A DNA stretch of 63,588 bases. It comes from a virus. The stretch covers positions 1-63,588 of IMG/VR virus record IMGVR_UViG_3300042311_000607; one strand, given 5' to 3'. The notes below the pieces were generated by a model. It saw only the letters and a list, made by a program, of their open reading frames with translations. It ran no database searches and was not told the origin of the DNA. Position numbers and translations under genes: made by a program. Positions 9,378 through 51,027 of this stretch are shown piece after piece; position 1 is the stretch's first letter, and every line of letters starts with the position of its first letter.

Positions 9378-9403
9378 CCCCATCCTGTCCGTTCCCTGCC
9401 CTG

Positions 9404-9436: not shown

Positions 9437-9446
9437 GGAGCATCCC

Positions 9447-10136: not shown

Positions 10137-10176
10137 TGGGGCGGGGTGAGGCAAGGGGCGCCAAGGAGAGATCGGC

Positions 10177-12495: not shown

Positions 12496-12820
12496 GCTGA
12501 TCGTGGGGCTGTTGGCGATGCTGCTGGCCGGGTGCGAGACGATCCAGACGGTGGTCGAAGACAAGCCGCCGACGCCGATCGTGTGCGAGGACGCGTGCAA
12601 GAAGCCTTGCGATGACGCTGCCGCGGTGGCGAAGTGGACATGCAGCAACCCTGATGCCGGCGAGTGCTGGGACCAGCAACAGGAGCAGGTCACCAACCCC
12701 CTGATTGAGCTGGCGGAGCGCTGCGAGGTGAAGCGGCAGGCGTGCTTTGCGTGCATTGAGCGCGCAGAAACTGCGGGCGCGACATGCGGGACCGTGATGG
12801 ACTGCAAAGCCAAGGAGTAG
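12488..12820 (+). CDS. Rz1: Outer-membrane spanin lipoprotein (Rz1-like)
   Basis: A 110-residue lipoprotein starting eight bases before the Rz-like gene ends. It has a signal peptide with lipobox LLAGC (Cys near residue 16), a PPTP stretch, and an unusually Cys-rich mature part. ATG at 12488 has GGGG seven bases upstream; ATG at 12482 is an alternative. It is longer than lambda Rz1 and its cysteines may form disulfides. The pairing supports an o-spanin role. Confidence 0.78.
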   Translation: MSRLIVGLLAMLLAGCETIQTVVEDKPPTPIVCEDACKKPCDDAAAVAKWTCSNPDAGECWDQQQEQVTNPLIELAERCEVKRQACFACIERAETAGATCGTVMDCKAKE

Positions 12821-12823
12821 ACC

Positions 12824-13435
12824 GTGGCACGAGGTGGGCGACCCAATCCGCATCAGAAGCTGCGCAACAGCAGTCGGCTCCAAAACGGGCTGAATCTGAA
12901 GCAAGCCGCGTTCGCCGCCGCCTATGCGGCCAATGGCGGGCAGGGCAAGGCTGCGGCGATCGCGGCCGGGTATGTGGAGAGCAACGCCGAGTCGCGGGCG
13001 TCGAAGCTGCTGACGGAGCCTGCGGTCCAGGCTGAGATCAAGCGGATTACGATGGCGGGCGCGGCACGCGCTGAGGTGACGGTCGAGCGGATCATGGACG
13101 AGCTGGCACTGGGCGGCTTCGCCGACATCACGGACTTCGTGGAGTGGGACAAGAAGGGCGTTCGGCTCAAGGATTCGGCGAAGCTGGACAAGGCCAAGCG
13201 GCGCGGGATCGTGGAAGTCAGTGAAGGCGCGCACGGGATCAGGATCAAGCTCATGAGCAAGGTCAACGCGCTGGAGCTGATGGGCAAGCAGATCGGGATG
13301 TTCAAGCAGCAGCTGGAGGTGGCCGGGGCTGGTGAGGGGCCGGTCGGATTCATCGTGGTGCCGGCAAAGGTGGCGCCGAACGACATCCCGCAGGAAGTGA
13401 AGGCGCATGTCGAAGTCGATGACGGAGACGACTAA
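12824..13435 (+). CDS. terS: Terminase small subunit
   Basis: A 203-residue protein with GTG start. LKQAAFAAAYAANGGQGKAA then AIAAGYVESNAESRASKLL match the N-terminal DNA-binding helix-turn-helix of the terminase small subunit family (TerS, Terminase_2). It recognises the packaging site and regulates the large subunit, whose gene overlaps its end by 29 bases. Confidence 0.92.
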   Translation: MARGGRPNPHQKLRNSSRLQNGLNLKQAAFAAAYAANGGQGKAAAIAAGYVESNAESRASKLLTEPAVQAEIKRITMAGAARAEVTVERIMDELALGGFADITDFVEWDKKGVRLKDSAKLDKAKRRGIVEVSEGAHGIRIKLMSKVNALELMGKQIGMFKQQLEVAGAGEGPVGFIVVPAKVAPNDIPQEVKAHVEVDDGDD

Positions 13436-14870
13436 ACCAGCGGCACCACCCATCATCTGGCAGCCGCTGCCAAAGCAAGCCGAATTCCTGGCGTGCTCAG
13501 ACTTCGAGGTGCTGTACGGCGGCGCGGCTGGCGGCGGCAAGTCAGACGCGCTGCTGATCGATGCATTGGGCATCCCGTACGGCGGCCCGCAAAACCCAAA
13601 GTGGCGCGCCATCATCTTCCGGCGCACGTCGCCCGAACTGGCCGACCTGATCGACCGCAGCCATGAGCTGTACCCGGCAGCGATGCCCGGGGCGAAGTAC
13701 AACGAGCAAAAGAGCTGTTGGACGCTGCCAGGCGGCGGCAAGGTGTTTCTGAGCCACCTTCAGCACGACACCGACCGGTACAAGCACCGCGGCCGCGCAT
13801 ACAACTGGGTCGGCTTCGATGAGCTGACGCTCTGGTCGACTGATCTTTGCTGGGAATACCTGATCACGCGCATTCGTACCACCGACCCGCGGCTGCCGCA
13901 GGTGATCAGGGGCACCACCAACCCGGACGGGCCCGGTCAGAAGTGGGTCATGGAGCGCTTCGGCATCGACGAACAGGGCGGGCCGACCCGACAGACCCGC
14001 ACAATTAATCGCGAGTTCTGGGACGAGGCGGCCGGGGAGTACGTCGAGCGGCCGGCGGTCACCGCAATCACCTTCATTCCAGCCAAGCTGGTCGACAACA
14101 AACACCTGCGCGGTACGGGCTACCGCGAGAACCTGCTCGACCGACCGCCTGAGGTGCGCGAGGCGCTGCTGCTGGGCCTGTGGCGCGGCAACGCGGTCAA
14201 GGGCGCCTACTACGCCAACCAGATGGCGAAGGTGCGCCAGGAGGACCGAATCACGCGCGTGCCTTGGCTGGTGGACGTGCCGGTGAACACCTTCTGGGAT
14301 CTGGGCATGAACGATGCGACATCAATCTGGTTTCATCAGTTCGCCGCCCTGGCGCATCGGTTCCCGCTGGCATACGAGAACAGCGGAGAGACGCTGCAGC
14401 ACTACGTGAACTTCCTGCAGGCAGTGGCCAAAGAGCACGGCATCGTCTACGGCACGCACTATCTGCCACACGACGCAGACAACCGAAGCCTACACACAGG
14501 CAAGACGGCAAAGATGGTGCTTCAAGAGGCACTGCCTGGGCATCGGTTCGAGGTGCTTCCACGGACGCCAAGTGTGACCCTAGGCATCCAGCAAACACGA
14601 GTGGCGTTCCCGCATGTGTGGATGGATCGCCAGGGCTGCGCTGACGGCATCGCAGCGCTCGATGCCTACCGCAAGAAGTGGAACCAACGCACCGAATCGT
14701 GGACCGACGAGCCCGAGCACGACCGTTTCTCCAACTATGCAGATGCGTTCAGGCAGTTCGGTGAGGGATACTTCCCCCGCCATCGGCATCGGGCGACGGT
14801 CACCAACGAAGCACGCGAGGGCCGCCCACGGCGCCGCGCCACCAAAAAAGGCAGCTGGAAATCCGCATGA
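13407..14870 (+). CDS. terL: Terminase large subunit
   Basis: A 487-residue packaging motor. Walker A GGAAGGGKS near residue 38, Walker B WVGFDELT near 134, coupling motif GTTNPDG near 170, then the nuclease domain with DLGMNDATS near 297 and an Asp-containing motif near residue 440 (DRFSNYADAFRQF). It pumps DNA into the prohead through the portal encoded at 15369 and cuts it. The first ATG overlaps terS; a second ATG at 13419 is possible. Confidence 0.96.
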   Translation: MSKSMTETTKPAAPPIIWQPLPKQAEFLACSDFEVLYGGAAGGGKSDALLIDALGIPYGGPQNPKWRAIIFRRTSPELADLIDRSHELYPAAMPGAKYNEQKSCWTLPGGGKVFLSHLQHDTDRYKHRGRAYNWVGFDELTLWSTDLCWEYLITRIRTTDPRLPQVIRGTTNPDGPGQKWVMERFGIDEQGGPTRQTRTINREFWDEAAGEYVERPAVTAITFIPAKLVDNKHLRGTGYRENLLDRPPEVREALLLGLWRGNAVKGAYYANQMAKVRQEDRITRVPWLVDVPVNTFWDLGMNDATSIWFHQFAALAHRFPLAYENSGETLQHYVNFLQAVAKEHGIVYGTHYLPHDADNRSLHTGKTAKMVLQEALPGHRFEVLPRTPSVTLGIQQTRVAFPHVWMDRQGCADGIAALDAYRKKWNQRTESWTDEPEHDRFSNYADAFRQFGEGYFPRHRHRATVTNEAREGRPRRRATKKGSWKSA

Positions 14871-15382
14871 GCACGATCTTCGTTCCAGGTTCACACCTCG
14901 CCAGCGCGTCCGCCGCGGCCGCCCGACCTGGGCAAGAGGCGCAGGCGGTGCTCGACGCCGAGGTGATGCCCACACTGGCCGCGTTGAAGCTGGACCTCAG
15001 CCAAGCCAAGGCGATCGGGAGCAAGGGCGATCTGCTGCTGTTCCGGGCCTACAAGGATTTCGGCATGGGTGCGCGGCCGGCCATGCTGCTGGCCCGCCGA
15101 CGCGACCCAGCCACCTCGCACGTATGGTTCCCGCTTGAATCGCTGTGGATCATCCGCGAGGGCGATCAGGCAGTGTCTGCAGCGATGAAAATCGCCAACC
15201 AGATCTACGGATTCGCCACCAAGGACGATGCGCACCGCGTGCTGGACTGCCTGTTCGAGTTCGCGGAAGACCTAGTGCGTACCCCGCCCGACCCGCGCAT
15301 GACGGCGCGCCAGTGGCTGGATGCGTGCGAGGAAGATGGCCTGACCGTGACGCACAGCTATGGGCCTGATGCCAATGGATAA
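14867..15382 (+). CDS. Hypothetical head-region protein, 171 residues
   Basis: Lies between terminase and portal, with a four-base overlap upstream and a small overlap with the portal gene. Mixed alpha/beta content with LWIIREGDQAVSAAMKIANQ centrally. No family is recognised; position suggests a packaging or head accessory role. Confidence 0.65.
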   Translation: MSTIFVPGSHLASASAAAARPGQEAQAVLDAEVMPTLAALKLDLSQAKAIGSKGDLLLFRAYKDFGMGARPAMLLARRRDPATSHVWFPLESLWIIREGDQAVSAAMKIANQIYGFATKDDAHRVLDCLFEFAEDLVRTPPDPRMTARQWLDACEEDGLTVTHSYGPDANG

Positions 15383-37485: not shown

Positions 37486-40400
37486 ATGCCAACCGACCAG
37501 AACCCTCGCCCGCGGACGAAGCTCGCCGACTTCGCGCCGCCTCAGCTGCAAGGGACTCTGGCGCCACCATTGCCCAAGCGCCGAACCGGTGGGGAGATCG
37601 TGGCCGACACCGCGCGCGGCGTGGCGCAGGGCGGCCAGACACTGGCGACAGGGCTGGCGCAGGTGCCGAATCTGCTGACAGGTGGCGCGCTGGACGACTA
37701 CGTGGTGAAGCCGGCCCAGCGTGCACTCGACCGTGCGCTGGGTGGACCTGGCACTGCGGGAGGCATCGCAGGCGGCAGCCAACAGATTTCCGAGGGCATT
37801 GCCGCGGGCTACAGCCCGGTGCTGAAGGCCGAACAGCAGAAGCTGCAGGACGCCCAGGGTTTTTTCGGGAAAGCGGCGACCGTGGCCACCAACCCGACCC
37901 TGCTGGGCCAGTTCGCCGCCGAGCAGGTGCCGAACCTGTTCACCCTCGGCGCGGGCGCGGCTGGGTCAGCCAGCGCCAAGACGGCGCAGGTGCTGGCGCG
38001 TGGAGGCACAGAAGCTGCGGCAGGTGCGGCCGGCCGTACCGCCGCCGAGCGCGCGCTGGTCGGCGCCAATGCGGCCATGGGTGGCGGCTTCGCCGGCAAC
38101 GCAGCGATGCAAGACGCGCTCAGCCAGCCGCAGGAGACGTGGGACGCGAACCCGGAGTATCAGGCGCTGGTGCGCGCGGGCACAGCGCCCGACCAGGCCA
38201 AACAGCAGCTGGCGCTGCGCGCTGGCCAGATCGCCGGCGCCGTGGCCGCGCCGATCAGCGCGGCGGCCGGCGCGATCACTGCACCGCTCGAGGCCCAGAT
38301 CTTTACCCGCGCGCTGGGCACCGAAGTCCCGCGGCTGTTCTCGCGCGAGGCGGGCGGCATCGTGGCGCGTGGCACCGCGAAGGAAGCCGCCGAGGAGGCG
38401 ATTCAGGAGGGTGGCGAGCAGTTCGGCCAGAACGTGGGCATCCAGCAAGCCGCCGACCCGACACGCGCGCTGTCGCAGGACGTGGCCGAGAACGCGGCCG
38501 TGGGCGGTGTGTTGGGTGGCATCCTGGGCGGCGGGCTCACCGCTGGCGGCCTGGCCGCCTCGCGCCCCCGCGCGCAACCGCAGGTGCCGAGCCTCGCGCC
38601 CGAGACGGCGCCGCAGCAGGCCGCCCCGGAAGCCGCACAGCCATTGGCGCCGGAGCCTGTAGCCGCCACCGAGCAGGCCGCCCCTGCCGCGCCGGTGCAG
38701 CCATTCCCAGGCGCCGCGCCCGGCACGCTGCAGGATGCCGTCAACGCGATCAGCGAGAACCAGCCGGCTGCGTCCACCGCGCCTATTGCGCCGCTGCTGC
38801 AGCCGGGGGAAACTCTGGATGCCGCGACGGGCGAGGTGCAGCCGCGCCAGCCCACGGAAGCCGAGAAGCGCCAGCGCGAAATGCAGGCCCTGCTCGACGC
38901 CAGCCCGCAGCCCGATCTATTCACCCCGGCCGCGCAACGCGGCAAGGAGCAAGGCCGTGACACGCAAGACAAACCCGCACGCCGGGGAACGACTCTTCAA
39001 CAAACTCCGCCAGAAAGCGCAGCAGATCGGCCTACAACCGACGCGTCTGCACTGGCTCAAGAGCCTGTCGCATCGCCGGAAGGTGCAGCTCAAGCGCGAG
39101 TTCAAGGCCCGGCCGCCGGGCTACAGCCAGATCCTGGCGCAGAGTTTGGCAGCGCTCAAAGCGCGCAACCGGCCGCCGGCGGAGCCACTGTTAGCGCCTC
39201 TGAAAACCCTGGTGCAACAGCCGCTGATGGCGGTGGTGTCACCGGCGGAGCACGACCACTGGAAGGACAAGGTGGGGCTGACGCTCGTGCCGGTGAAGAC
39301 GCTGAACCAGCCACGCGGGCCAGAAGCCCCCGAGCTGCGGATGGAGATTCGGCGCTTGACGCGGATAGCAGCCCACCCGCTGGCGGAGCGCTGACCGATG
39401 GCCAGCAACCTGATCAGCGAGCGGTCAATACGCGACGACTGGAACAACCTGTCGCTGGCGCAGAAGGTGTTCCGCAAGCGGCGGACGGCCCAATGGCGGA
39501 GGGAGACGCTTCGCCATCAGATGATGGCGCGCTACGTAATGCGGAACCGGCTGGCAGAGCTGTTCAACAGGATGCGGTTCAAAACGCTGACCCTGCCGCC
39601 GTAACCCAGCCCGAGAGCACCCCCAATGCACGAGAAGCAACTGCGCCACCTGCTGAATCAGGCGGAGCTGAGGGCGTACCACTTGGCGGGATTGGTGGCG
39701 AGGGAGCGACTGCTGCGCGTGATGCTGGTGGTGAACCTGCAGCACCGCCGGCCGCTGGCGCCACTGCCCCCGCCGCTGCAGCGCCTGGAACCGCCGAAGT
39801 AGATGCCGCCGCGGCCGGCCCTGCCGCGAACACCCTGGAGAGCACTGATGTACGGACGAATCCCGAACAAGGGGCCGGCCCCGGCCAAAGCCCCGCCCAA
39901 GCAGTCGAAGGCACCGCCGGCCAAGAAGAAGGCCAAGCTCGAGGCCTGACGCCCGAGCAACTGACGAGTGAGCGGAAACGCATCGGCCTACCCCGCGTGG
40001 TGCGGAAGGCCGATGCAATCATTGCGCTGCGGCGCAGTGGGATGAAGGTGCCGGAAGCCGAGGCGGCGTTCAACACGCTGGGGCGGAAGGGGCTGAAAGA
40101 AGGCACCCGAATGGGTGACGACGTGGCCGCGCTGATCGTGGCGCGAACGCAGCCGGCGGCGCCAACGCCGGCAACCGAGGGGGTGATCCAGAATGCCGAC
40201 GATCGACAACAGTCGGTTACTGTAGAGCCACCCGCCGCGGCATCCCCAGCCGCGGCGGGTGCAACCCCCAAGGCCCCGAAGCGTCGCACCGGAGAATCCA
40301 ATGCAGAACCCACAGCAGAAGACGCCGCAGGCTTGCCGGAACCAGGCCCTGCTGCGGTATCAGGCGATGGAGACACAGGCCAGGCGGTTGGCAAGCCTGT

Positions 40401-43400
40401 TCGTCAAACGGTTCCGCGCCGCGGTCCGGCCGACCGCCAAGCGATTGCAGAGCGCGGCATCGTGCCGGGCATGCGTGTCAGCTACGAGAAGCCCGACGGA
40501 ACGCGCGTAGAAGGCGCAGTTCGGGCGATCGAGAAATCAGGCGTTGAGGTTGACGTCGATGGCGTGTGGGTGCGCGGACTGAAGCTTGAGCCGGTGGCTG
40601 CCGCTCAGTCAGCAGACGCGCCTGCGGCTGTGCTGCAAGGCCCGGCGGAGCAGGTGCGCGCAGCCGTAGTGGGCGCGCCGGCTGGGCTGGCCAAGACCTT
40701 CACCAAGCTGGCCGACGCGATTGAGGCGAAGAACGAAGGCGCTTTGAACAACATCCTGGCGTCTGTCAGCAACGCGAAGTCCCGCGAGCTGTTCCAAGCC
40801 GCCACTGGCGTCAAGCTGCCCCGCACCGTCAGCGGCACAAAAGCCGCAATCAGCGCATGGGCGCAGCAACCGCCGCCGACCGAAACCCCGCGCGTTGAGG
40901 CCGCCGCAGCCGATACTCCAACTGGAGAAAGCAATGCAGTACGAGCAGTGGAAGACACAGGCCCGGCAGCACTGGAAGGAGCACCGGCCACAGATGTTCA
41001 AGCACCTGCAGGAGGGGAGCCAACTGCAGAAGGCGCTGACGAGGGCAGTCGAGCAGACCGCCGCGGACCTGGAAGAGCTTCAGGCCGAGGGGATGAACTG
41101 GCACCAGGCGTGGGAGATGGTGCGCGAACGCTACCTGTTCCTGCCGCCGGAGCAGAGCAAGAGAGCGGAACCGATGGGAAGCCAGGGCTATCCGGCAATG
41201 CGGGAGATGCAAAGACTGCGCCGAAATCTCGCCGAAGCAAGCGACTAAGCGCCGAGGCAAAAACAGACGGACAACCCGGGCTGACAGCGCCGGAGCCGCC
41301 CCAGATCCCCGCGCAGGACTTCGCGATCACCGACGAGATCGAGCTTGGCGAGGGCGGACAGAAGACCAAGTACCGCCGAAACGTCGACGCCATCCGTTTG
41401 CTGAACACCCTACAGGCCGAGGGTCGCAACGCCACGCCGGAAGAGCAGCGCACCCTGGCGCTGTACGTCGGCTGGGGCGGCTTGGCGCAAGCCTTTGATG
41501 CCGACAACGCGCAGTGGTCTCGTGAGTTCGCCGAGCTCAAGGAATTGCTGACCGAGGACGAGTACGAAACCGCGCGGCAGTCCACGCAGTACGCGCACTA
41601 CACCAGCCGCGAGATCATCAACGGCATCTACGCCGGCATGCAGCGCATGGGCTTTACCGGCGGCAACGTGCTGGAGGCGGGCGGCGGCGTGGGCAACTTC
41701 ATCGGCCTCATGCCCGATAGCATGCGCTCCGCTGGGCGCTTCACTCTGGTCGAGCGTGAGCGCATCGCCGCAGGCATCGCCAAGGCGCTGTACCCAAGGC
41801 AGAACGTGCAGCTGGGCGACTTCCGCGCCTTCGGCAAGGGTGACGACGGGTATTTCGATGCCGTGATCGGCAACCCGCCTTTCGGCCGTGTCGACATGAC
41901 CGACCTGTCCGGCCGCAAGCACCTGAGCGGCCTGCGCATCCACAACTACTTCATCGCCAAGAGCATAGACCTGCTGCGCGAGGGCGGCCTACTGGTGAAC
42001 GTGGTGTCGCATGGATTCATGGATGCTGGCGACCAGCGCGCGCGCCAGTACATCGCCGAGCGTGCCGAGCTGGTGGCCGCAATCCGCCTGCCCAACGATG
42101 CCTTCAAGGGCAACGCGCACACGGAGGTAACCACGGACATCGTGATCTTCCGTAAGCGGCCTGAATCCGAATGGCGCAGCCGCAAGGCGGCCGAAGAGGC
42201 GAAGGCCTGGCTCGAATCCACGACCGTGCCGGACCCGGACGGCGGCGACCCGATCCCGACCAACGCCTACTTCGTGCGCAACCCCGACAAGATGCTGGGC
42301 GAGTGGGGGCGATACGGAACCATGCGCACCGGCAACATGCCGGCGCTCCGTGCGCGCGCTGGGCAGGACACTGGCGCACTGCTGCGGCAGGTGGCCAAGC
42401 AGCTGCCGCAGGGGCTGTTCGAGGCGCGCTCAATCGCGCGCACGGAAGCCATGGTGCAGCGGCAGGCCGTGAAGTTGCTGAATCCACCGGTGTCTGAGGG
42501 CGGGCACTTCATTCAGGACGGCAAGCTGATTCAGCGCACGCAGAACATCGCGGGCGAAGCCGTGGGGCGTGAGCTGACGCCTGACACCCCGTGGACCGAG
42601 AAAACCACGCTTGGCGCCAAGGGCTTTGAGCGACTGCGCCAGCTGGCAGGGCTACGCCAGACCGTGCGCGAACTGCTGGCTGCGGAGCTCTCCGACTCGC
42701 TCAGCATCGAGACACTGCGCGCGCGGCTCAACACCGAGTACGACGCCTATGCGAAGGACGGTCTGTTGAACGACGCTGGCACGGCACGCCTGTTCGGGGA
42801 CGACCCGGACTACCCGCTGCTGGCTTCGCTGGAGCTGGATTACAAGCCTGGCATGGGTGCGGCTGCGGCGAAGACAGCTGGCGTCAAGCCGTTCAAGAGC
42901 TCCGCCAAGAAAGCCGCTATCTTCGAGCGCCGCGTGATTCCGGTGCGCAAGGAGGTTGAGCGCGCCAGCAGCCCGCAGGACGCTCTGAATGTGAGCCTGG
43001 CCGAGCGCGGCCGGCTCGATGCCGAATACATCGGCAAGTTGCTGGGCCGCGATTCGGCCGAAGCGCTGCGCGAGCTGTCGACCGGCTCAAACCCGCTGCT
43101 GTATCTGGATCCCGCATCGGGGGAATATGCCCTGCGCGATGCCTACCTGTCTGGTAACGTCCGCAAGAAGCTGGCGCAGGCGCGGGAGTCCGGCATGATG
43201 AACAACGCGGCTGCGCTCGAATCCGTGCTTCCCAAGGATGTGGGCGCCGCCGAGATTTCCGTGCGCATTGGCGCGCCCTGGGTTCCGCCAGCCGTCTACG
43301 AGGACTTCGCGAAATCGCTTCTCGGCGATGGGACAAAGGCCCGGCTGCGCTACATCGCGTTCGATTCGAGCTTTTCGGGGGAAATCGTTGCGGGCTCGGC

Positions 43401-46400
43401 AGTCGCAAGCGCCAACACCTACGGAACGCAGAGCTACCCAGCGGGCGACCTGATGTTGGCCATGCTCAACAATCGGGAAATCAAGGTCACTCGCCGCGAC
43501 AGCGACGGCAAGACCTGGGTCGACAAGGATGCTACCGAGGAAGCGAAGGACAAGGCCAAGGAGATCCGGGCCAAGTTCCAAGATTGGGCGTTCGCCGATC
43601 CCGATCGCGCCGAGGTGCTGGTGCGCACCTACAACGACGCCAACAACAACTACGTCACCCGCGCTTACGATGGCAGCTGGCTGACCTTCCCGGGCAAGGT
43701 GCCCGACGAGATCATCAAGTTCCGTCGGCACCAGCGGAATTTCATCGCGCGCGTGGTTCAGGACCGCACGGCGCTGGCCGATCATGTCGTTGGCGCCGGC
43801 AAGACCTACAGCGCTATCTCTGCCGCCATGGAGCTCAAGCGCACCGGCTTGGCCAACAAGCCCATGATCGTGGTGCCAAATCATCTGGTGAAACAGTGGG
43901 CCGCTGACTTCTACCGCCTGTACCCAGGCGCCAACATCCTGACCGCGAGCAAAAAGGACTTCGAGCGCTCCAGCCGTCGCCGCTTCCTGGCCAAGATCGC
44001 GCAGAACGATTGGGACGCGGTGATCATCGCGCATAGCAGTTTTGGCTTCGTGCGGCCGTCTCCTGAGTTCGAAGAGTCGTTCATTGCCGGTGAAACGACC
44101 GAACTTCGCAAGCTATTGACCGAGCTGAAAGGCAGCGAAGACAAAAGCGACAAGCGCAAGGTGAAGCAAATTGAGGCCTCGCTGGAGCGGCTGGACAACC
44201 GGCTCAAGTCTCTGCGCGACAAGCCCATGGACGATCTGCTGGATCTTGAGCAGCTGGGCGTGGATCAGCTTTTCGTGGACGAGGCGCACCTGTTCAAGAA
44301 CCTGATGTTCAGCACCAAGATGCAGAACATTCGCGGCCTGGGCGACTCCGCAGGCAGCCAGCGTGCCTACGACATGTTGATCAAGACGCGCCAGATCATG
44401 GGCAAGAACGGCCGCGATCAAGGCGTGGTCTTCCTCACCGGCACGCCGGTCAGCAACTCGCTGGCCGAGATGTACCACATGATGCGATACCTGATGCCAA
44501 CCGCCATGAAGGAGGGCGGCTTCGACAACTTCGACGCCTGGGCCAACACCTTTGCGGACATCGAAGAGACGCTTAAGCCCACGACCGCGGGCGGCTACAA
44601 GACCATCACCGCATTCGAGCGTTTCTTCAACGTGATCGAGCTGCTGCAGATGTTCGATCAGGTGTCGGACACCGTGACCATGGACGATATCAAGGCCGCG
44701 TATCGAGAAGAAAACGACGGCCGCGAGTTCCCGCTACCCAAGCTCAAGGGCGGCCGCCGGCAGCCGGTGGCCATGGAAATGAGCGAGCGCCAGCGGGCCT
44801 ACATGGAAGAGGTGGGCAAGCGCGCTGAGGCGTTGGAGGCACGCAAGGGCCCGCCCAAGAAGGGCGAAGACAACCACCTGAGCCTGATGAGCGACGCCCG
44901 AAAGGCGGCGATGGACATCCGGCTGGTAGACCTTGACGTGACCGAGCGCGAGGCCGGCGCGCGTATTGATCGCGCCGCGTCCAATGTCTTCGAGCGCTGG
45001 CAGAAGTGGGACAAGCAAAAGGGCGTGCAGCTGGTGTTCTCGGACCTGGGAACGCCGCTGAGCGGGGTCAAGAAAGAGCTGGCGGAGTATCAGGAGATCA
45101 AGGCCGCCGCCGCCCCGCTGGAAGATGCAGACGTGCAGCGCCGCGCCGAGTTGGGCGACGAGCAGGCCTTGGCTGCGCTGGAGGATGCTGAGGAAGCACA
45201 GGCGAAGCTGGACGCGGCCGGGCCTGATTGGCTTGACGCGATCCGCGCCGCTGAGCGTGGATTCTCCGTGTACGACGACATGCGCGCAGCGCTGGTTGAG
45301 CGCGGCGTGCCGGCCGAGCAAATCGCTTTCATCCACGACTACAACAGCGACAACGCCAAGGCCGCGCTCTTCCGCAAGGTCAACGATGGCGAGATCCGCG
45401 TGCTGCTGGGCTCCACCCCGAAGATGGGCGCCGGCACTAACGTGCAGAAGCGCCTCGTGGCTCTGCACCACCTGGACATCCCGTGGAAGCCGTCGGACGT
45501 GGAGCAGCGCGAGGGCCGCATCATCCGGCAGGGCAACCTGCTGGCGGACACGCTGCCCGACTTTGAGGCGGAAATCCTGGCCTACGTGACCAAGGACACG
45601 CTCGACAAGAACATGTGGGACATTCAGGAGCGCAAGATCCGCGGCATCAACCAGCTGCGCAGCCGGCAGATCAGCCGCGAGATCGAGAACAGCTTCGATG
45701 AAATGGAGATGTCGGCCAGCGAGATGCAGGCCGCGGCCACTGGAAACACCGACTTGCTGCGCGAGATCCAGCTGCGCAACGACATCACCAAGTTGGAGCG
45801 CAAGGGCCGCTCTTACCAGGCCCAGCAGTCTGAGGTGGTGCAGGCAAAGCGCCGCGCCGAGGCTGCTGTTCAGACGCTTCCGGCACAAATCAAGCGCGAA
45901 GAGCAATGGAACTCACTGGCCGCCAAGTACGACCAATCTACCGACCTGCCTGCGAACTGGAAGGTAGAGATCGGCGGCAAGACGTTCAAAGAACCCCGCG
46001 CTGCACGCGCCGAGGCGCTTCGTATCGAGAATGAGCGGGTCACCGACAAGGACGGAAAGGAGAAAGCCAAGCCGCTCGACGTGACCGTCGATGGCGAGCG
46101 TTTCACCGGGCGCGTGGCGTTCAGCGAGGCGGTGCTGGATAAGGTGGGTGACCAAGAGCCGATCCGCTGGGATTTCCCCGGCGGGCCGCTGACGCGGCGT
46201 GCCCGCGTTGCTGCTGAAGTGCAGAAGAGGATTGCGGATGCGCTCGCCGAAAGGCAGGACGAGGTAGAACTTGGTCGACTTGGCGATTTTGCCGTTCGGC
46301 TGGACCTCGGCGCGCGCCGCTGGGTGCTGACTGTTGAGGGCGATCAGGTGGGCGATCGCCAGACGGATTACTACGTCGACATCTCGCCCGATGGCGGGGT

Positions 46401-49400
46401 GTCGGACCAGGATCTTCTGCGCGTCGCCAAGGGCATCGCCGGAGCGGCGCCCAACATGGTCGGCGGCTCCCGCGTCGAAATGCTTCGCCGTGACCTGGCC
46501 AGCGCCGAGCGCACTCTGAAGGATCTGGCAGACAAGGACATGACCGCCCCATGGGCTGACCAGGGTGCGCTCGACGCTTTGCGTGCAGAGCAGCGGGAAA
46601 TCATCAAGCGGATTCAGGCTGCCAAAGCGGAGGCCGCTGCGGCGCGCGCCGCCGAAGCGCCTGCACAGAAGGAACCGGAAACGCCCGTCAGCCCCACGCG
46701 CGGCAAGCCGCAGACGCGCCGGGTCTACAACCCAGATGGAAGCTACTACGACGCGCCCGCGAGCGCGCCCCAGTCGACTCCGGAAGGCGGCCCACTGTTC
46801 TCCAACATCCCCGGCCGGCCGCCTGCTGTCCCAGGCGCTGATGCCGCCAAGCTCCGCACCGCCGTCGCGCGCATCACCCGCGGCTGGGCCGCAGACACCG
46901 CCCCAACTGTGCGCGTGATCGCCACGCCGGCAGATCTGCCGGCCGCCGCGCGCCGCGACCGCCGCCACACGGACGCGGAGGGCTTCTTCGAGCCCAGCAC
47001 CAGCACGATCTACCTGGTGGCATCGAACCTGCCCACCGAGCAGCGCGCACTGCAGGTGCTGGCACACGAGGCGGTTGGCCACTACGGCATGGAGGCGATC
47101 ACCGGGCCGGAGCTGTGGGGCGAGCTGGAAACAGCGATTGAGCGGCTGGAGACGAGCGCCCAGGGCCGCACGCGTGAGGCGTTGGCCAGCGCGCGCCGTC
47201 GATACGCCGGCGCCGACCGCACCACCTTCACCCGCGAGGCGATCGCGATCATGGCCGAGCTGGGTGTGCAGAACAGTGTCATCGCGCGCGTCACCGCGGC
47301 CCTGCGCCGCTTCCTGCGCACGCTGGGCTTCGATCTGAAGCTGAGCGAGGCGGACGTGCTGGCCATGCTGCGCGACAGCGAGCGCTACCTGCAGCGTGGT
47401 GGCGCCGGCCAGCAGCAGGCCGCGGAGGGCGCCTTCAGCTTCGCGGGTATGCGCTCACGCACGGCAGACCGCTACGCCAAGCTCACCGCCATGAAGCGCC
47501 TGGCCGCCGGCGAAGACGCCGAGACGATCCGGCAGGAAACCGGCTGGCACAAGGGCAAGGACGGCCAGTGGCGCTACGAGATCAGCGACGATACGGCGCG
47601 GATGCTGGTCGACGGGGAGACGATCGGCCAGGCCATGAACGGCGACGCCAGCACAGTCGGGCAGGTGCTCGACCACCCAAGCCTGTTCGCCGCCTACCCG
47701 GACCTTGCGCGCCTGCCGTTGGACCTGCTGCCCGCCGAAGGCCGCAGCCGTGGCTCCATGGGCCCGGCCGGCGCAAGCCTGCGCGAGAACCTGGACATGG
47801 GCACCGCGCGCAGCGTGCTGCTGCACGAGCTGCAGCACGCCATCCAGAACATCGAGCAGTTCGCGCGCGGCGGCAACCTCGACACGGTGAAGGGGACTTC
47901 CGAGTACCGCCAGCTGGATGCGACGTTCCAGCGGCGCGGCCAGCCCACGCCTGTGTCTGTCGCCACTGAGGTGTACCGCCGTTTGGCCGGCGAGGTGGAA
48001 GCGCGGAACACGCAGGCGCGCCTGAACATGACGACCGAAGAGCGCCGCCTGATGGAGCCCGAGCTGACCGCAGACGTGCCGGTAGAGCGCACCATCGTGG
48101 TGTTCAACGGCAAGGAGGCGAAGGACGTCCCGGCGCCAGCGAACGCAGAGCCCGACGGCGCCTTCAGCCTGCGTGAGCCCGGCGGCCTGGGTGCTGCTGC
48201 CGCATCTGACCCGCCCGGCTTCCTCGCCCGTCTGGGCGCGCTGATGAAGCCCGACAACCTGACCCTGATGGAGGCGATCAAGGCCAAGGGACAGGACTTG
48301 GCGCCGGCCGCACTCGGCGCGCTGACGCTCCGCCACATCGCGGACCTAGGCAAGAAGTACCTGCCGCAGCTGCCGCGCTACATCGACTACCTCAACCGCA
48401 TGCAGACCGACCGGAACCTGCTGCAGGAGGAAGGCAACGCGCTGGCCGAGAAATGGCGCGGCATGCAACGCAAGCGCTCCGAGCGGCCGCATGCCAGTGC
48501 GATGGCGGACCTGATGCACGACGCCACGATCGAGGGGGTCGACCCGGCCGAGGAATACCAGCCCCTGACCTTCAAGAACCTGCAGCGCGAGACGGTGCCG
48601 CTCACGGACAAGACGCTCCGCGACCACATCAAGGCCCTGCGCGCGCAGATGCTCAGCCGGCCCGGTGATAGCAAGGTCGAGAAGATGGCCGAGGTGCGCG
48701 ACCTGCGCAAGAAGCTGGCACAGGAGAAGCGCCGCCGCCGCGCGTACCCGCAGATGGTGGCCCGCTGGAATCAGCTTCCGCCGCAGTGGCAGGCGCTGTA
48801 CCGCGAGGCCCGCGACATGTACGCCAAGCGGTCCGACGAGACGCTGCAGGCGCTGATCGCGCGCGTGGGCGAGCTCGACATGCCGGACGAGCAGCGGCGC
48901 AAGACCAACGCCGAGATCCGGCTGATGTTCGAGCAGGCTCGCGTGGCCGGGCCGTACTTCCCGCTGCAGCGCTTCGGCAACTACTGGATCGCCGCGAAGA
49001 ACCCGGACACGGGCAAGCGGGATTTCTTCATGTTCGAGTCCGCGGCCGACCAGCTGGCGGCACAGCGCGACCTGAAGCTGCAGGGGTACACCGACCAGTC
49101 ATCGGGCAAAAAGCTCGAGCAGGCCCGCGATGCGTTCGGCGCCGGCGAGGGATTCATCACCGAGGTGCAGCGCAAGCTGACCGCCAGCGGTGCGCCGTCA
49201 GATCTGCAGGATGAGATCTGGCAGCTGTACCTGCGCACCCTGCCGGACCTGAGCCAGCGGAAGCACATGATTCACCGCAAGAAGGTGGCCGGCTACAACC
49301 CGGACGCGCTGCGTGCATTCGCGGCCAACGCCAACCATGCGGCCTACCAGATCGCCCGGCTGCGCTTCGGCCACAAAATGCAGCGGCTGGTGATGGAGGC

Positions 49401-51027
49401 GAAGGGCTGGGCGGACTCGAGCTCGAAGACCGAGGGCGGCAACGCGGCGAGCATCTACTACAACGAGTTGATCAAGCGGCACGAATGGGTCATGAACCCA
49501 AGCGACAACGCGCTGGTCAACAAGATCAGCGGGCTGGGCTTCGCGTGGTATCTGGGCGTGACGCCTGGCGCGGCGATGGTCAACCTGACGCAGACCGCCA
49601 TCGTGGCCGGCCCGGTGCTGGCCTCAAGGTTCGGCGCGGCGAAGTCGATGAACGCGCTGACCGCCGGCATGCGCGATTCAATCCGCACCGGTGGCAATAT
49701 CGAGCGCACGCTGCGAGATGACGAGCTGCGCGCCTACCAGGCCATGCGCGCATCGGGCGCGATCGACAAGACACAGGCGCACAACCTGGCCGGCATGGCC
49801 GAGACGGACAGCGCGCAGTACAACGACAGCTGGCACCGGGTGATGTCGGGGATCAGCTTCCTGTTCCACAAGGCCGAGGTGGTGAACCGCGAAGCCACCG
49901 GCATGGCCGCGTACCGGCTGGGTCGCGAGAGCGGCATGAGCTTCGATGCGGCCGTCCAGTACGCTGAGGACATCATCTGGGAGAGCCACTTCGACTACAG
50001 CAACGCGAACCGAGCCCGCTTCATGCAGTCCGGCGCGGCCAAGGTGCTGCTGATGTTCCGGCAGTACAGCCTGAGCATGAGCTACTTCCTGTGGCGCAAC
50101 TTCTACCAGTCGCTGAAGGGTGAGACCCCGCGGATCCGCACTGAGGCCCGCCGCAAGCTGGTTGGCGTGCTGGGCATGACCGCGGTGTTCTCCGGCACCC
50201 TAGGCCTACCAGCGATGAGCATGCTGTTCGGCGTGGCCAACGCCATGGCGGATGCCTTTGGCGAGGACGATGACCCGCCGTTCGACGCTGAGGCCGAGTT
50301 CCGGAACTTCCTGACCGACTTCATGGGCGCCGACGTCGCGCGCCTGATTGCCCGCGGTCCGGTGAACTTCGCCACCGGCGCCGACATCGCCAGCCGCGTG
50401 ACCCTGGATGGGCTGTGGCTGCGCGAGCCTGAGCGCGAGCTCGAGGGCAAGGCGTTGGCCAGCTACTGGCTGGAGCAGGCGGCCGGCCCGATCGGCGGCA
50501 TCTTCGTCAACGGAATGCAGGGCCTGAGCCTGATGCACGAGGGCGAGTGGTGGCGCGGCGTGGAGGCGATGACCCCAAAGGCGATCAAGGACGGCATGCG
50601 CTCTGTGCGGTACACCACAGAAGGCGTGAACACCCTGCGCGGGGATGCCCTGATCGAAGATCTGAGCCCGCTGCAGGCAGTGCTTCAGCTGTCGGGCCTG
50701 ACGCCGGCGCAGATCAACGAGCGGTACGACGCCAACAACGCGATCAAGCGCTACGAGGAAAGCATCCTGCGCAATCGATCGCGCCTGCTCGACGGCATCG
50801 CCCTGGCGGTGCGCATGGGCGACGACACCATGCGCGAGCTCGCTTTGCAGCGGATCCGATCATTCAACGCCGCCAACCCGGAGATTCCCATCGACAGCCG
50901 CACGATCATGACCAGCCTGAAGGCCCGCCAGCGCTTCACGGAGCGCAGCCTGGGCGGCATTGCCGTCAACCCGAAACTGGAAGGCCGCGCGCGCGAGCAG
51001 GGTCGGTTCGCCGAGGAAAACCCATGA
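37486..51027 (+). CDS. Giant polyvalent DarB-like protein: methyltransferase, SNF2-type helicase, zincin motifs, LPD38-like region
   Basis: A 4513-residue open frame with AAGGA eight bases upstream. In order: hydrophobic Ala/Gly-rich N-terminus (1-350); Ala/Pro/Gly linkers containing two domain-like blocks (about 820-910 and 980-1130); an N6-adenine methyltransferase (VLEAGGGVGNF near 1395, NPPF at 1463); an SNF2-type helicase (VVGAGKTYS near 2101, VDEAH near 2264, QREGRIIRQGN near 2674); HEAVGHYG at 3194; HELQHAIQ with LAGEVEARNTQ at 3447, resembling LPD23; and a C-terminal LPD38-like region with a hydrophobic stretch near 4230-4255. This is the architecture of polyvalent proteins ejected with phage DNA for anti-restriction and genome establishment. 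Six +1-frame ORFs overlap 38957-41248. Domain names come from motifs read by eye. Confidence 0.9.
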   Translation: MPTDQNPRPRTKLADFAPPQLQGTLAPPLPKRRTGGEIVADTARGVAQGGQTLATGLAQVPNLLTGGALDDYVVKPAQRALDRALGGPGTAGGIAGGSQQISEGIAAGYSPVLKAEQQKLQDAQGFFGKAATVATNPTLLGQFAAEQVPNLFTLGAGAAGSASAKTAQVLARGGTEAAAGAAGRTAAERALVGANAAMGGGFAGNAAMQDALSQPQETWDANPEYQALVRAGTAPDQAKQQLALRAGQIAGAVAAPISAAAGAITAPLEAQIFTRALGTEVPRLFSREAGGIVARGTAKEAAEEAIQEGGEQFGQNVGIQQAADPTRALSQDVAENAAVGGVLGGILGGGLTAGGLAASRPRAQPQVPSLAPETAPQQAAPEAAQPLAPEPVAATEQAAPAAPVQPFPGAAPGTLQDAVNAISENQPAASTAPIAPLLQPGETLDAATGEVQPRQPTEAEKRQREMQALLDASPQPDLFTPAAQRGKEQGRDTQDKPARRGTTLQQTPPESAADRPTTDASALAQEPVASPEGAAQARVQGPAAGLQPDPGAEFGSAQSAQPAAGGATVSASENPGATAADGGGVTGGARPLEGQGGADARAGEDAEPATRARSPRAADGDSALDADSSPPAGGALTDGQQPDQRAVNTRRLEQPVAGAEGVPQAADGPMAEGDASPSDDGALRNAEPAGRAVQQDAVQNADPAAVTQPESTPNAREATAPPAESGGAEGVPLGGIGGEGATAARDAGGEPAAPPAAGATAPAAAAPGTAEVDAAAAGPAANTLESTDVRTNPEQGAGPGQSPAQAVEGTAGQEEGQARGLTPEQLTSERKRIGLPRVVRKADAIIALRRSGMKVPEAEAAFNTLGRKGLKEGTRMGDDVAALIVARTQPAAPTPATEGVIQNADDRQQSVTVEPPAAASPAAAGATPKAPKRRTGESNAEPTAEDAAGLPEPGPAAVSGDGDTGQAVGKPVRQTVPRRGPADRQAIAERGIVPGMRVSYEKPDGTRVEGAVRAIEKSGVEVDVDGVWVRGLKLEPVAAAQSADAPAAVLQGPAEQVRAAVVGAPAGLAKTFTKLADAIEAKNEGALNNILASVSNAKSRELFQAATGVKLPRTVSGTKAAISAWAQQPPPTETPRVEAAAADTPTGESNAVRAVEDTGPAALEGAPATDVQAPAGGEPTAEGADEGSRADRRGPGRASGRGDELAPGVGDGARTLPVPAAGAEQESGTDGKPGLSGNAGDAKTAPKSRRSKRLSAEAKTDGQPGLTAPEPPQIPAQDFAITDEIELGEGGQKTKYRRNVDAIRLLNTLQAEGRNATPEEQRTLALYVGWGGLAQAFDADNAQWSREFAELKELLTEDEYETARQSTQYAHYTSREIINGIYAGMQRMGFTGGNVLEAGGGVGNFIGLMPDSMRSAGRFTLVERERIAAGIAKALYPRQNVQLGDFRAFGKGDDGYFDAVIGNPPFGRVDMTDLSGRKHLSGLRIHNYFIAKSIDLLREGGLLVNVVSHGFMDAGDQRARQYIAERAELVAAIRLPNDAFKGNAHTEVTTDIVIFRKRPESEWRSRKAAEEAKAWLESTTVPDPDGGDPIPTNAYFVRNPDKMLGEWGRYGTMRTGNMPALRARAGQDTGALLRQVAKQLPQGLFEARSIARTEAMVQRQAVKLLNPPVSEGGHFIQDGKLIQRTQNIAGEAVGRELTPDTPWTEKTTLGAKGFERLRQLAGLRQTVRELLAAELSDSLSIETLRARLNTEYDAYAKDGLLNDAGTARLFGDDPDYPLLASLELDYKPGMGAAAAKTAGVKPFKSSAKKAAIFERRVIPVRKEVERASSPQDALNVSLAERGRLDAEYIGKLLGRDSAEALRELSTGSNPLLYLDPASGEYALRDAYLSGNVRKKLAQARESGMMNNAAALESVLPKDVGAAEISVRIGAPWVPPAVYEDFAKSLLGDGTKARLRYIAFDSSFSGEIVAGSAVASANTYGTQSYPAGDLMLAMLNNREIKVTRRDSDGKTWVDKDATEEAKDKAKEIRAKFQDWAFADPDRAEVLVRTYNDANNNYVTRAYDGSWLTFPGKVPDEIIKFRRHQRNFIARVVQDRTALADHVVGAGKTYSAISAAMELKRTGLANKPMIVVPNHLVKQWAADFYRLYPGANILTASKKDFERSSRRRFLAKIAQNDWDAVIIAHSSFGFVRPSPEFEESFIAGETTELRKLLTELKGSEDKSDKRKVKQIEASLERLDNRLKSLRDKPMDDLLDLEQLGVDQLFVDEAHLFKNLMFSTKMQNIRGLGDSAGSQRAYDMLIKTRQIMGKNGRDQGVVFLTGTPVSNSLAEMYHMMRYLMPTAMKEGGFDNFDAWANTFADIEETLKPTTAGGYKTITAFERFFNVIELLQMFDQVSDTVTMDDIKAAYREENDGREFPLPKLKGGRRQPVAMEMSERQRAYMEEVGKRAEALEARKGPPKKGEDNHLSLMSDARKAAMDIRLVDLDVTEREAGARIDRAASNVFERWQKWDKQKGVQLVFSDLGTPLSGVKKELAEYQEIKAAAAPLEDADVQRRAELGDEQALAALEDAEEAQAKLDAAGPDWLDAIRAAERGFSVYDDMRAALVERGVPAEQIAFIHDYNSDNAKAALFRKVNDGEIRVLLGSTPKMGAGTNVQKRLVALHHLDIPWKPSDVEQREGRIIRQGNLLADTLPDFEAEILAYVTKDTLDKNMWDIQERKIRGINQLRSRQISREIENSFDEMEMSASEMQAAATGNTDLLREIQLRNDITKLERKGRSYQAQQSEVVQAKRRAEAAVQTLPAQIKREEQWNSLAAKYDQSTDLPANWKVEIGGKTFKEPRAARAEALRIENERVTDKDGKEKAKPLDVTVDGERFTGRVAFSEAVLDKVGDQEPIRWDFPGGPLTRRARVAAEVQKRIADALAERQDEVELGRLGDFAVRLDLGARRWVLTVEGDQVGDRQTDYYVDISPDGGVSDQDLLRVAKGIAGAAPNMVGGSRVEMLRRDLASAERTLKDLADKDMTAPWADQGALDALRAEQREIIKRIQAAKAEAAAARAAEAPAQKEPETPVSPTRGKPQTRRVYNPDGSYYDAPASAPQSTPEGGPLFSNIPGRPPAVPGADAAKLRTAVARITRGWAADTAPTVRVIATPADLPAAARRDRRHTDAEGFFEPSTSTIYLVASNLPTEQRALQVLAHEAVGHYGMEAITGPELWGELETAIERLETSAQGRTREALASARRRYAGADRTTFTREAIAIMAELGVQNSVIARVTAALRRFLRTLGFDLKLSEADVLAMLRDSERYLQRGGAGQQQAAEGAFSFAGMRSRTADRYAKLTAMKRLAAGEDAETIRQETGWHKGKDGQWRYEISDDTARMLVDGETIGQAMNGDASTVGQVLDHPSLFAAYPDLARLPLDLLPAEGRSRGSMGPAGASLRENLDMGTARSVLLHELQHAIQNIEQFARGGNLDTVKGTSEYRQLDATFQRRGQPTPVSVATEVYRRLAGEVEARNTQARLNMTTEERRLMEPELTADVPVERTIVVFNGKEAKDVPAPANAEPDGAFSLREPGGLGAAAASDPPGFLARLGALMKPDNLTLMEAIKAKGQDLAPAALGALTLRHIADLGKKYLPQLPRYIDYLNRMQTDRNLLQEEGNALAEKWRGMQRKRSERPHASAMADLMHDATIEGVDPAEEYQPLTFKNLQRETVPLTDKTLRDHIKALRAQMLSRPGDSKVEKMAEVRDLRKKLAQEKRRRRAYPQMVARWNQLPPQWQALYREARDMYAKRSDETLQALIARVGELDMPDEQRRKTNAEIRLMFEQARVAGPYFPLQRFGNYWIAAKNPDTGKRDFFMFESAADQLAAQRDLKLQGYTDQSSGKKLEQARDAFGAGEGFITEVQRKLTASGAPSDLQDEIWQLYLRTLPDLSQRKHMIHRKKVAGYNPDALRAFAANANHAAYQIARLRFGHKMQRLVMEAKGWADSSSKTEGGNAASIYYNELIKRHEWVMNPSDNALVNKISGLGFAWYLGVTPGAAMVNLTQTAIVAGPVLASRFGAAKSMNALTAGMRDSIRTGGNIERTLRDDELRAYQAMRASGAIDKTQAHNLAGMAETDSAQYNDSWHRVMSGISFLFHKAEVVNREATGMAAYRLGRESGMSFDAAVQYAEDIIWESHFDYSNANRARFMQSGAAKVLLMFRQYSLSMSYFLWRNFYQSLKGETPRIRTEARRKLVGVLGMTAVFSGTLGLPAMSMLFGVANAMADAFGEDDDPPFDAEAEFRNFLTDFMGADVARLIARGPVNFATGADIASRVTLDGLWLREPERELEGKALASYWLEQAAGPIGGIFVNGMQGLSLMHEGEWWRGVEAMTPKAIKDGMRSVRYTTEGVNTLRGDALIEDLSPLQAVLQLSGLTPAQINERYDANNAIKRYEESILRNRSRLLDGIALAVRMGDDTMRELALQRIRSFNAANPEIPIDSRTIMTSLKARQRFTERSLGGIAVNPKLEGRAREQGRFAEENP
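38957..39394 (+). CDS. Nested +1-frame ORF 1 in the giant gene, 145 residues
   Basis: GTG start with AAGGAG seven bases upstream. The product is basic and helical with ordinary composition (RLFNKLRQKAQQIGLQPTRL, HWLKSLSHRRKVQLKREF, HDHWKDKVGLTLVPVKTLNQ). In the giant frame the same DNA gives low-complexity Ala/Gly/Asp/Pro sequence. Its stop is three bases before the next nested start. No family is named. Expression is inferred from start signal, composition and spacing. Confidence 0.6.
   Translation: MTRKTNPHAGERLFNKLRQKAQQIGLQPTRLHWLKSLSHRRKVQLKREFKARPPGYSQILAQSLAALKARNRPPAEPLLAPLKTLVQQPLMAVVSPAEHDHWKDKVGLTLVPVKTLNQPRGPEAPELRMEIRRLTRIAAHPLAER
39398..39604 (+). CDS. Nested +1-frame ORF 2, 68 residues
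   Basis: ATG with GGAG nine bases upstream (39385-39388). Strongly basic, helical product (MASNLISERSIRDDWNNLSL, VFRKRRTAQWRRETLRHQMM) with Trp, Phe and Tyr absent from the giant-frame linker. Same frame as its neighbours. Possibly nucleic-acid binding. Confidence 0.6.
   Translation: MASNLISERSIRDDWNNLSLAQKVFRKRRTAQWRRETLRHQMMARYVMRNRLAELFNRMRFKTLTLPP
39626..39802 (+). CDS. Nested +1-frame ORF 3, 58 residues
   Basis: ATG 21 bases after ORF 2, with only a weak GAG upstream. Encodes an amphipathic helix (MHEKQLRHLLNQAELRAYHL, ARERLLRVMLVVNLQHRR) ending in a Pro/Leu tail. The weak ribosome binding site suggests translational coupling to ORF 2. Confidence 0.5.
   Translation: MHEKQLRHLLNQAELRAYHLAGLVARERLLRVMLVVNLQHRRPLAPLPPPLQRLEPPK
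39848..39949 (+). CDS. Nested +1-frame ORF 4, 33 residues
   Basis: ATG with GGAG seven bases upstream. A tiny Lys/Pro/Ala peptide (MYGRIPNKGPAPAKAPPKQS, then Lys-rich end KKKAKLEA), like small nucleic-acid-condensing tails. Short enough to be chance, but spacing, start signal and frame match the other nested ORFs. Confidence 0.42.
   Translation: MYGRIPNKGPAPAKAPPKQSKAPPAKKKAKLEA
40301..40510 (+). CDS. Nested +1-frame ORF 5, 69 residues
   Basis: ATG with GGAG six bases upstream. The first 50 residues form a basic helix (ACRNQALLRYQAMETQARRL, then FVKRFRAAVRPTAKRLQ). The last 20 residues look weaker, and this is where the giant frame re-enters a domain-like block (AIAERGIVPGMRVSYEKPDG), so the overlap is partly shared. 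Confidence 0.5.
   Translation: MQNPQQKTPQACRNQALLRYQAMETQARRLASLFVKRFRAAVRPTAKRLQSAASCRACVSATRSPTERA
40934..41248 (+). CDS. Nested +1-frame ORF 6, 104 residues (strongest candidate)
   Basis: ATG with GGAG six bases upstream. The product is clearly protein-like: QYEQWKTQARQHWKEHRPQM, ALTRAVEQTAADLEELQAEG and NWHQAWEMVRERYLFLPPEQ, with four Trp and many charged residues. By hand count about 83% of third codon positions are G or C in this frame, the pattern of real genes here. The giant frame gives Ala/Gly/Asp/Glu linker over the same bases. The W-x-x-x-A-R-x-HW and AWE-x-VRERYLFLPPE pattern looks like a conserved small phage family, but I cannot name it securely. Confidence 0.68.
   Translation: MQYEQWKTQARQHWKEHRPQMFKHLQEGSQLQKALTRAVEQTAADLEELQAEGMNWHQAWEMVRERYLFLPPEQSKRAEPMGSQGYPAMREMQRLRRNLAEASD

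What the first reader, a model, noticed from the sequence alone, without database searches (positions are those of the whole stretch)
38957..41248. Six nested +1-frame genes inside the linkers of the giant polyvalent gene
Six ORFs (38957-39394, 39398-39604, 39626-39802, 39848-39949, 40301-40510, 40934-41248) run in one frame, +1 to the 4513-residue frame. Five have a GGAG or AAGGAG 6-9 bases upstream; gaps between the first four are 3, 21 and 45 bases, like an operon. Products have ordinary composition, mostly basic and helical with Trp and Phe. The giant frame over the same DNA is Ala/Gly/Pro/Asp linker, and where the giant frame looks domain-like (about 39950-40200 and 40510-40860) the nested frame is empty. 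This complementary alternation suggests two interleaved coding layers: a virion protein plus a hidden set of small, perhaps host-takeover, proteins. Alternatively the giant frame across this region is the passive one and the locus is really separate genes.
Basis: partly seen in the sequence, partly recalled or inferred. Interest (0 to 1): 0.93.

Follow-up and report, generated by a model that had tools for sequence, protein, structure and literature searches.

The report
Hidden genes inside a giant gene
A giant phage gene, thought to make one huge DNA-protection protein, carries several small unannotated genes in a second reading frame; one of them is conserved in the same hidden position across many phages and in Verrucomicrobia, so sequence databases are missing a whole layer of phage proteins.

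Summary
The six ORFs exist as described, and five are very probably real nested genes. Over ORF1, ORF2, ORF3 and ORF6 the coding signal leaves the giant frame and moves to the +1 frame: giant GC3 falls from 0.83 to 0.36-0.45 (z -9 to -12). ORF length alone proves nothing.

ORF6 is decisive. Homologues lie in the same +1 register inside the giant, just before its methylase-helicase part, in over 70 phages or prophages and inside about 1,720-residue methylase-helicase genes of Verrucomicrobia. Inside ORF6 the giant's first codon position, which is the nested wobble, evolves fastest in 25/28 phage and 14/14 Verrucomicrobial independent pairs. Before and after it, the giant wobble does. 84 of 90 phage copies have a Shine-Dalgarno match against 24% expected. 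Free-standing copies exist.

ORF3 and ORF4 (start 39848) are conserved in one relative, and ORF1's start and SD are too. ORF5 fails the tests and is probably spurious.

The giant frame is also kept open, so this is dual coding, not separate genes. 'Host takeover' is unsupported. ORF6 is a helical, TnpV-like protein, probably a partner of the DNA-protection machinery (inferred). No report of these genes was found.

The parts
37486..51027 (+). Giant polyvalent (DarB-like) gene, 4,513 codons: N-terminal linker-rich part, Eco57I/N6 methylase (about 41830-42090), SNF2/DEAD helicase (about 43774-44301; Helicase_C about 45319-45534), LPD23 (about 47434-47601), LPD39 (about 48265-48960)
   Evidence: ORF; Pfam; DarB/PLxRFG annotation of relatives
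38944..38949 (+). AAGGAG Shine-Dalgarno of nested ORF1, conserved in L203 (GGAAGGAG)
38957..39394 (+). Nested ORF1 (GTG start, 145 aa, pI 11.6); coding phase switches to +1 at this start; L203 has an ORF with the same start and SD (VTRKT...)
39398..39604 (+). Nested ORF2 (68 aa, pI 11.9); supported by codon phase only; its WNNLS motif also occurs in the L203 ORF1 counterpart
39626..39802 (+). Nested ORF3 (58 aa); L203 has a homologue of the same length, start and stop; no clear SD in the window
39848..39949 (+). Nested ORF4 (33 aa, MYGRIPNKG...), SD GGAG at 39837-39840; start, SD and N-terminus conserved in L203
40301..40510 (+). ORF5 of the finding: probably spurious (negative nested codon score, giant-type substitution pattern, stop not conserved in L203, no homologue)
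40924..40927 (+). GGAG Shine-Dalgarno of nested ORF6
40934..41248 (+). Nested ORF6 (104 aa): deeply conserved helical TnpV-like protein (HWK..P...L..G.L..AL..A...T....L...G...AW...RE.YLF.P.E)

Best explanation
The linkers of the giant polyvalent (DarB-like) gene are dual-coding. Small genes lie in the +1 frame inside them: ORF1, ORF2, ORF3, ORF4 (39848) and ORF6 in this phage. ORF6 is the conserved core case: it makes a roughly 100-residue helical protein, distantly like TnpV, encoded immediately upstream of the DNA methylase-SNF2 helicase part of the giant. Shown by sequence: the nested frame is under protein-level purifying selection, it has its own start and ribosome-binding site, and the giant frame is kept open through it. 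Inferred: both products come from the same late mRNA, the giant by initiation at 37486 and the small proteins by internal initiation at their own SD sites. Inferred: the ORF6 protein assists or regulates the methylase-helicase DNA-protection (antirestriction) module next to which it is nearly always encoded; the basic ORF1-4 proteins are lineage-specific accessories of unknown role. The giant-frame amino acids over the nested genes are probably passive Ala/Gly/Pro/Asp spacer. A +1 overlap suits this: the nested second codon position falls on the giant's wobble, and the nested wobble falls on the giant's first position. The confidence given is for the dual-coding claim; the antirestriction-partner role alone I put at about 0.5.
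For: Same +1 register in 9 annotated phage giants and the unannotated Itty13 giant. 73 viral and 80 genome loci, nearly all nested in a long -1 frame. Fastest giant codon position by independent pairs: phages before G3 26/27, nested G1 25/28, after G3 28/28; Verrucomicrobia 11/13, 14/14, 14/14. Nested amino-acid identity exceeds giant identity at every divergence (0.94 vs 0.85 at 90-99.9% nt identity). SD match in 84/90 phage copies vs 24% background. Giant frame open although a mean of 3.7 stops per nested gene is expected in phages and 1.9 in Verrucomicrobia; window product P = 7.5e-4. Free-standing copies in Corticibacter (SD GAAGGAG), Variovorax and Pseudidiomarina. AlphaFold pLDDT 92-97 over residues 1-70. 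TnpV profile match P = 2e-6, and 4e-7 for the Verrucomicrobial form. Window codon phase. ORF3 and ORF4 conserved in L203 with a nested-type substitution pattern. Other nested +1 candidates in giants, none in +2 (29 vs 0). The JC1 homologue gp69 (4,515 aa) is found in virions with 51 unique peptides (PMC9144972).
Against: No expression data for any nested product. Function is inferred from position only. Orphan ORF6 copies without a DarB-like gene within about 8 kb on each side (L092, L097) show it can act apart from the giant. ORF1-4 have only one relative, and ORF1/ORF2 diverge from it strongly; the L203 ORF1 counterpart itself has a negative nested codon score (-18 bits). ORF3 lacks an SD in the window. 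The open-giant-frame test uses loci partly chosen for a long giant frame, although only 8 of 164 loci are interrupted. Verrucomicrobial copies often lack a clear SD (23/52 have one).
Confidence: 0.9

Rival explanations
1. Separate genes: the giant frame over this region is an accident, and the true proteins are the small ORFs plus a shorter methylase-helicase gene starting downstream.
For: Over the nested genes the giant frame has negative codon scores and evolves like a passive frame.
Against: The giant frame stays open against 1.9-3.7 expected stops per nested gene. It shows normal giant-type substitution immediately before and after ORF6 in phages, and in Verrucomicrobia from a conserved ATG and QLDLF motif upstream of the nested gene. 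No start codon lies near the nested stop in most loci. The JC1 giant is a virion protein with 51 peptides (PMC9144972).
Confidence: 0.05
2. Programmed frameshifting: ribosomes on the giant slip into +1 and make an N-terminal half carrying ORF6 as a C-terminal domain, as the PBC5 record (orf33) would suggest.
For: In PBC5 the upstream half is open in the nested frame and ends with ORF6.
Against: Conserved start codon and SD. In Pavtok, PEp14, Stean, SopranoGao and LASTA the nested frame is closed two codons before the ATG. Free-standing copies exist. The PBC5 layout is unique among the loci seen and may be a one-base sequencing error.
Confidence: 0.03
3. Constraint on RNA or DNA structure, or a composition island, mimics a second coding frame.
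For: GC composition changes sharply in these stretches.
Against: Variation concentrates at nested wobble positions and the amino-acid sequence is conserved between this phage and Verrucomicrobia at about 40% identity. SDs are enriched, stand-alone copies exist and a confident fold is predicted.
Confidence: 0.02

Closest known systems
TnpV (Pfam PF14198), small protein of Firmicutes mobile elements
   Same: Similar N-terminal half (YGRM...HRP...G.LH..L); hhalign probability 89-93% (P 2e-6 and 4e-7); 8 of 12 phage members give weak Pfam hits (best 1.8e-4). TnpV is also a small protein of mobile elements, and no function for it was found here.
   Different: Below the Pfam cut-off; C-terminal halves do not align. 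The Firmicutes TnpV genes examined here are annotated or appear as free-standing ORFs, not nested in a methylase-helicase gene.
DarB-like polyvalent proteins (Iyer et al. 2017, PMC5512222; phage JC1 gp69, PMC9144972)
   Same: The giant itself: methylase-SNF2 helicase dyad with LPD domains.
   Different: Searching those texts for overlapping or nested genes gave none, and the retrieved GenBank records annotate no separate CDS at ORF6.
Classical nested or overprinted phage genes (phiX174 B, E and K; Rz1 within Rz) - from general knowledge
   Same: A complete gene in another frame of a longer gene, started at its own ribosome-binding site.
   Different: Here several lie in the linkers of one giant gene, always in +1 in the detected cases, and one is conserved across bacterial phyla.

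Membership tests
Overlapping (nested) protein-coding gene | Purifying selection on the nested frame that the outer frame cannot explain | tested here: met
   Substitution phase, for ORF6; ORF3 and ORF4 against one relative
Overlapping (nested) protein-coding gene | Outer frame also maintained | tested here: met
Overlapping (nested) protein-coding gene | Translation signals at the nested start | tested here: met
   SD in 84/90 phage ORF6 copies against 24% background
Overlapping (nested) protein-coding gene | Protein product detected | not testable with these tools
   Needs Ribo-seq or proteomics
TnpV (PF14198) | Score above the Pfam gathering cut-off (27 bits) | tested here: not met
   Window 13.3 bits, 16.8 bits in the six-frame genome search
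TnpV (PF14198) | Profile similarity over the conserved N-terminal core | tested here: met
   hhalign 89% and 93%
TnpV (PF14198) | Conserved C-terminal motif (W...MN.IR.RAEEI...E) | tested here: not met
   Absent from A3; alignment stops at about residue 57
DarB-like polyvalent protein (the giant) | Methylase fused to SNF2/SF2 helicase plus LPD domains | tested here: met
DarB-like polyvalent protein (the giant) | Packaged in the virion and acts in antirestriction | not testable with these tools
   Known only for relatives (JC1 gp69, P1 DarB)

The most novel reading that the evidence does not exclude
The low-complexity linkers of polyvalent giants are not just spacers but hosts for a second, cassette-like genome layer: small genes are captured in the +1 frame when giants form or grow, kept under selection, exchanged between lineages, and are invisible to annotation. 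This would hold across DarB-like giants in general (three further nested families already seen) and reach back to the common ancestor of the phage and Verrucomicrobial methylase-helicases.
Probability: 0.45. Interest if true: 0.9.

Novelty: new variant of a known kind. Interest (0 to 1): 0.82.

Why it matters
Nested genes are known in phages, but a deeply conserved, unannotated gene hidden in the same frame of a giant DNA-protection gene from proteobacterial and other phages to Verrucomicrobia is unexpected. It means genome annotation misses genes in one of the largest phage genes, suggests an explanation for part of its long Ala/Gly/Pro linkers, and names a specific partner to test in phage antirestriction. 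It is directly testable in cultured phages (JC1, BcepMigl, LASTA, Pavtok, Itty13).

Tried and rejected
ORF length or openness as evidence: rejected, not significant. ORF1 start at ATG 38735: rejected, phase switches at 38957. ORF4 start at ATG 39803: disfavoured, no SD; the 39848 start is conserved with its SD. Homologues of ORF1, 2, 3 and 5 in phage records, and of ORF1, 2 and 5 in IMG/VR by peptide search: none; L203 was found only through the giant N-terminus. ORF6 in plasmids: none. Burkholderiales genomes by DNA: nothing closer than Xenophilus. L203 and L204 records have no match to the methylase part or ORF6, so could not be used for ORF6. PDB fold search: no match; BFVD: one strong match, Q8W6J4_2, unnamed. 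NCBIfam and PADLOC: nothing useful.
Full report
The observation. The window is a podovirus-like genome: large terminase, portal, major head protein and head-closure families are present. Its largest gene (37486-51027, 4,513 codons) encodes an Eco57I/N6 methylase, an SNF2-type helicase, LPD23 and LPD39, that is, a DarB-like polyvalent protein. The six ORFs in the finding are all there, in the +1 frame, with the stated gaps and Shine-Dalgarno (SD) matches.

Is it more than chance? Openness is not: when synonymous codons of the giant are resampled, a single +1 frame stays open with P 0.07-0.96, although five ATG ORFs of 50 aa or more is rare (P 0.002-0.005). Codon phase is far more telling. The giant has GC3 0.83-0.86 elsewhere. 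It drops to 0.45, 0.43, 0.36 and 0.39 over ORF1, ORF2, ORF3 and ORF6, while giant position 1 (the nested wobble) rises to 0.81-0.88. Against resampled codons this is z -9 to -12. A codon model trained on the phage's own genes turns negative for the giant and positive for the nested frame over ORF1, 2, 3, 4 (39848) and 6, and the reverse in the two domain-like gaps. ORF5 is negative in both frames.

ORF6 is a conserved gene. tblastn finds it in 22 phage records, 11 distinct phages plus one weak hit. In all nine where the giant is annotated whole on that strand, and in the unannotated Itty13 giant, it lies in the same +1 register just upstream of the methylase part. A profile search adds 73 viral and 80 bacterial-genome loci. 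Most sit inside giants of 2,500-5,000 codons. The Verrucomicrobial group sits inside genes of about 1,720 codons encoding a methylase-helicase (Pfam on L122), typically about 70-80 nt after the first ATG of that gene.

Selection. Using independent pairs, giant position 3 is the fastest-changing before the nested gene (26/27 pairs) and after it (28/28), as expected for a gene read in the giant frame. Inside the nested gene it is giant position 1 in 25/28 phage pairs and 14/14 Verrucomicrobial pairs (binomial P 1e-9 and 2e-7). Nested amino-acid identity exceeds giant identity at every level of divergence. The giant frame is nevertheless protected: given the nested protein and normal codon usage, 3.7 (phages) or 1.9 (Verrucomicrobia) giant-frame stops are expected per nested gene, yet only 8 of 164 loci have any. 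Several of those (L092, L095, L097, L099, L105) have no detectable giant similarity around them, so the giant is absent or decayed there. Part of this set was chosen for a long giant frame, which inflates the joint probability but not the count of 8 in 164.

Translation. 84 of 90 phage copies have an SD match of at least 4 nt at the proper distance, against 24% of control positions. In Pavtok-like and Lasta-like phages the nested frame is closed two codons upstream of the ATG, which argues against frameshifting. In Corticibacter the gene stands alone with SD GAAGGAG; Variovorax and Pseudidiomarina have further stand-alone copies.

ORF1-ORF5. Peptide searches failed, but the giant's N-terminus retrieved one close relative, L203. 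It has ORF3 at the same length with the same start and stop, ORF4 with the same MYGRIPNKG start and SD, and an ORF1-like gene with the same SD, GTG and VTRKT beginning. ORF3 and ORF4 change fastest at giant position 1; the neighbouring domain and ORF5 change fastest at position 3. L203 has one nested gene of 147 aa where the window has ORF1 plus ORF2, so content varies while the giant stays in frame. The L203 ORF1 counterpart scores poorly with the window's codon model, so ORF1 and ORF2 rest mainly on the window's own codon phase. ORF5's stop is not conserved and its scores are negative, so I reject it.

A wider layer. A codon-model scan of 77 giants detected ORF6 in 66 and found 29 other nested candidates, all +1 and none +2. 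At least three recurrent families exist: a 57-69 aa protein in rhizobial phages about 6 kb downstream of ORF6, a 76-aa protein in Pavtok-like phages about 2.3 kb upstream, and a roughly 107-aa protein with a perfect AGGAGG in Burkholderia Lessieviruses at the ORF6 position. Most informative pairs in these families show the nested substitution pattern. The Lessievirus protein may be a far-diverged ORF6 (hhalign 58%). Among the phages found by DNA similarity of the methylase region, every one I examined has a nested +1 candidate there.

What ORF6 is and does. AlphaFold gives a confident helical protein (pLDDT 92-97 over residues 1-70) with no PDB match. Its N-terminal half aligns with TnpV of Firmicutes mobile elements but fails the Pfam cut-off and lacks the TnpV C-terminus, so I call it TnpV-like, not a TnpV. 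Its constant place beside the methylase-helicase makes a role with that DNA-protection module most likely (about 50%); stand-alone copies, one beside a type I HsdM-like methylase gene, show it can also act apart from the giant. Host takeover is not supported by anything found.

Prior knowledge. Six text searches and targeted look-ups in the polyvalent-protein and JC1 papers found no report of these genes. The library lacks most subscription papers; the original Bcep22 paper did not turn up. I rate this a new variant of a known kind (overprinted genes), with an unusual depth of conservation and an unusual host: the linkers of a polyvalent giant.

Noticed in passing
L113-L165 (Verrucomicrobia), just upstream of the nested gene (e.g. 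L122 7916-7985): The large methylase-helicase starts with a conserved QL[DSEN]LF motif, mostly 5-6 codons before the nested gene; it resembles the sliding-clamp binding motif (from general knowledge). Strict QL[DS]LF in 34 of 47 Verrucomicrobial loci and 0 of 84 phage loci.
   Followed up: partly
L010/L014 (Sinorhizobium phage PBC5 orf33): PBC5 orf33 (2,185 aa) is in the nested frame and ends with ORF6; the downstream giant half is in another frame. PHROG family phrog_938 ('endolysin', profile length 2,185) appears to be built on this, so its label for ORF6-like proteins is misleading. Real split or one-base error unknown.
   Followed up: partly
L002 (Pseudomonas phage Itty13): The GenBank and RefSeq records annotate three opposite-strand ORFs (QRE00577-QRE00579) over a single unannotated giant frame (2996-15322).
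   Followed up: partly
L009 14589-14798, L033 14502-14687, L041 14496-14687, L096 14619-14819, L100, L103: Second conserved nested +1 gene in rhizobial phage giants (IDPPSPFDTLQ.WK.W...WP..DP.R...LK.AR..I..K).
   Followed up: partly
L003 5529-5759, L005 5763-5993, L007 5748-5978; possibly L028 5736-5897: Third nested +1 family in Pavtok-like phages (EVWEKMHLLRRP..SL.LH), SD GGAGG.
   Followed up: partly
L193 5904-6242, L194 9399-9722, L195 9422-9745: Burkholderia Lessieviruses (JC1, BcepMigl, DC1) carry a nested +1 gene at the ORF6 position (perfect AGGAGG in BcepMigl and DC1), unannotated although the virion proteome of JC1 is published.
   Followed up: partly
L196 9723-9899 (Pseudomonas phage 8P): A different 58-aa nested +1 candidate directly upstream of the methylase region.
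   Followed up: no
L095 and L099 7974 onward (Pseudidiomarina): Stand-alone ORF6 relative; in L099 it is fused to a probable transmembrane tail and lies near an AAA ATPase gene.
   Followed up: no
L092 8001-8321 (Variovorax): Stand-alone ORF6 copy near an AlpA-type regulator and a type I HsdM-like methylase gene.
   Followed up: partly
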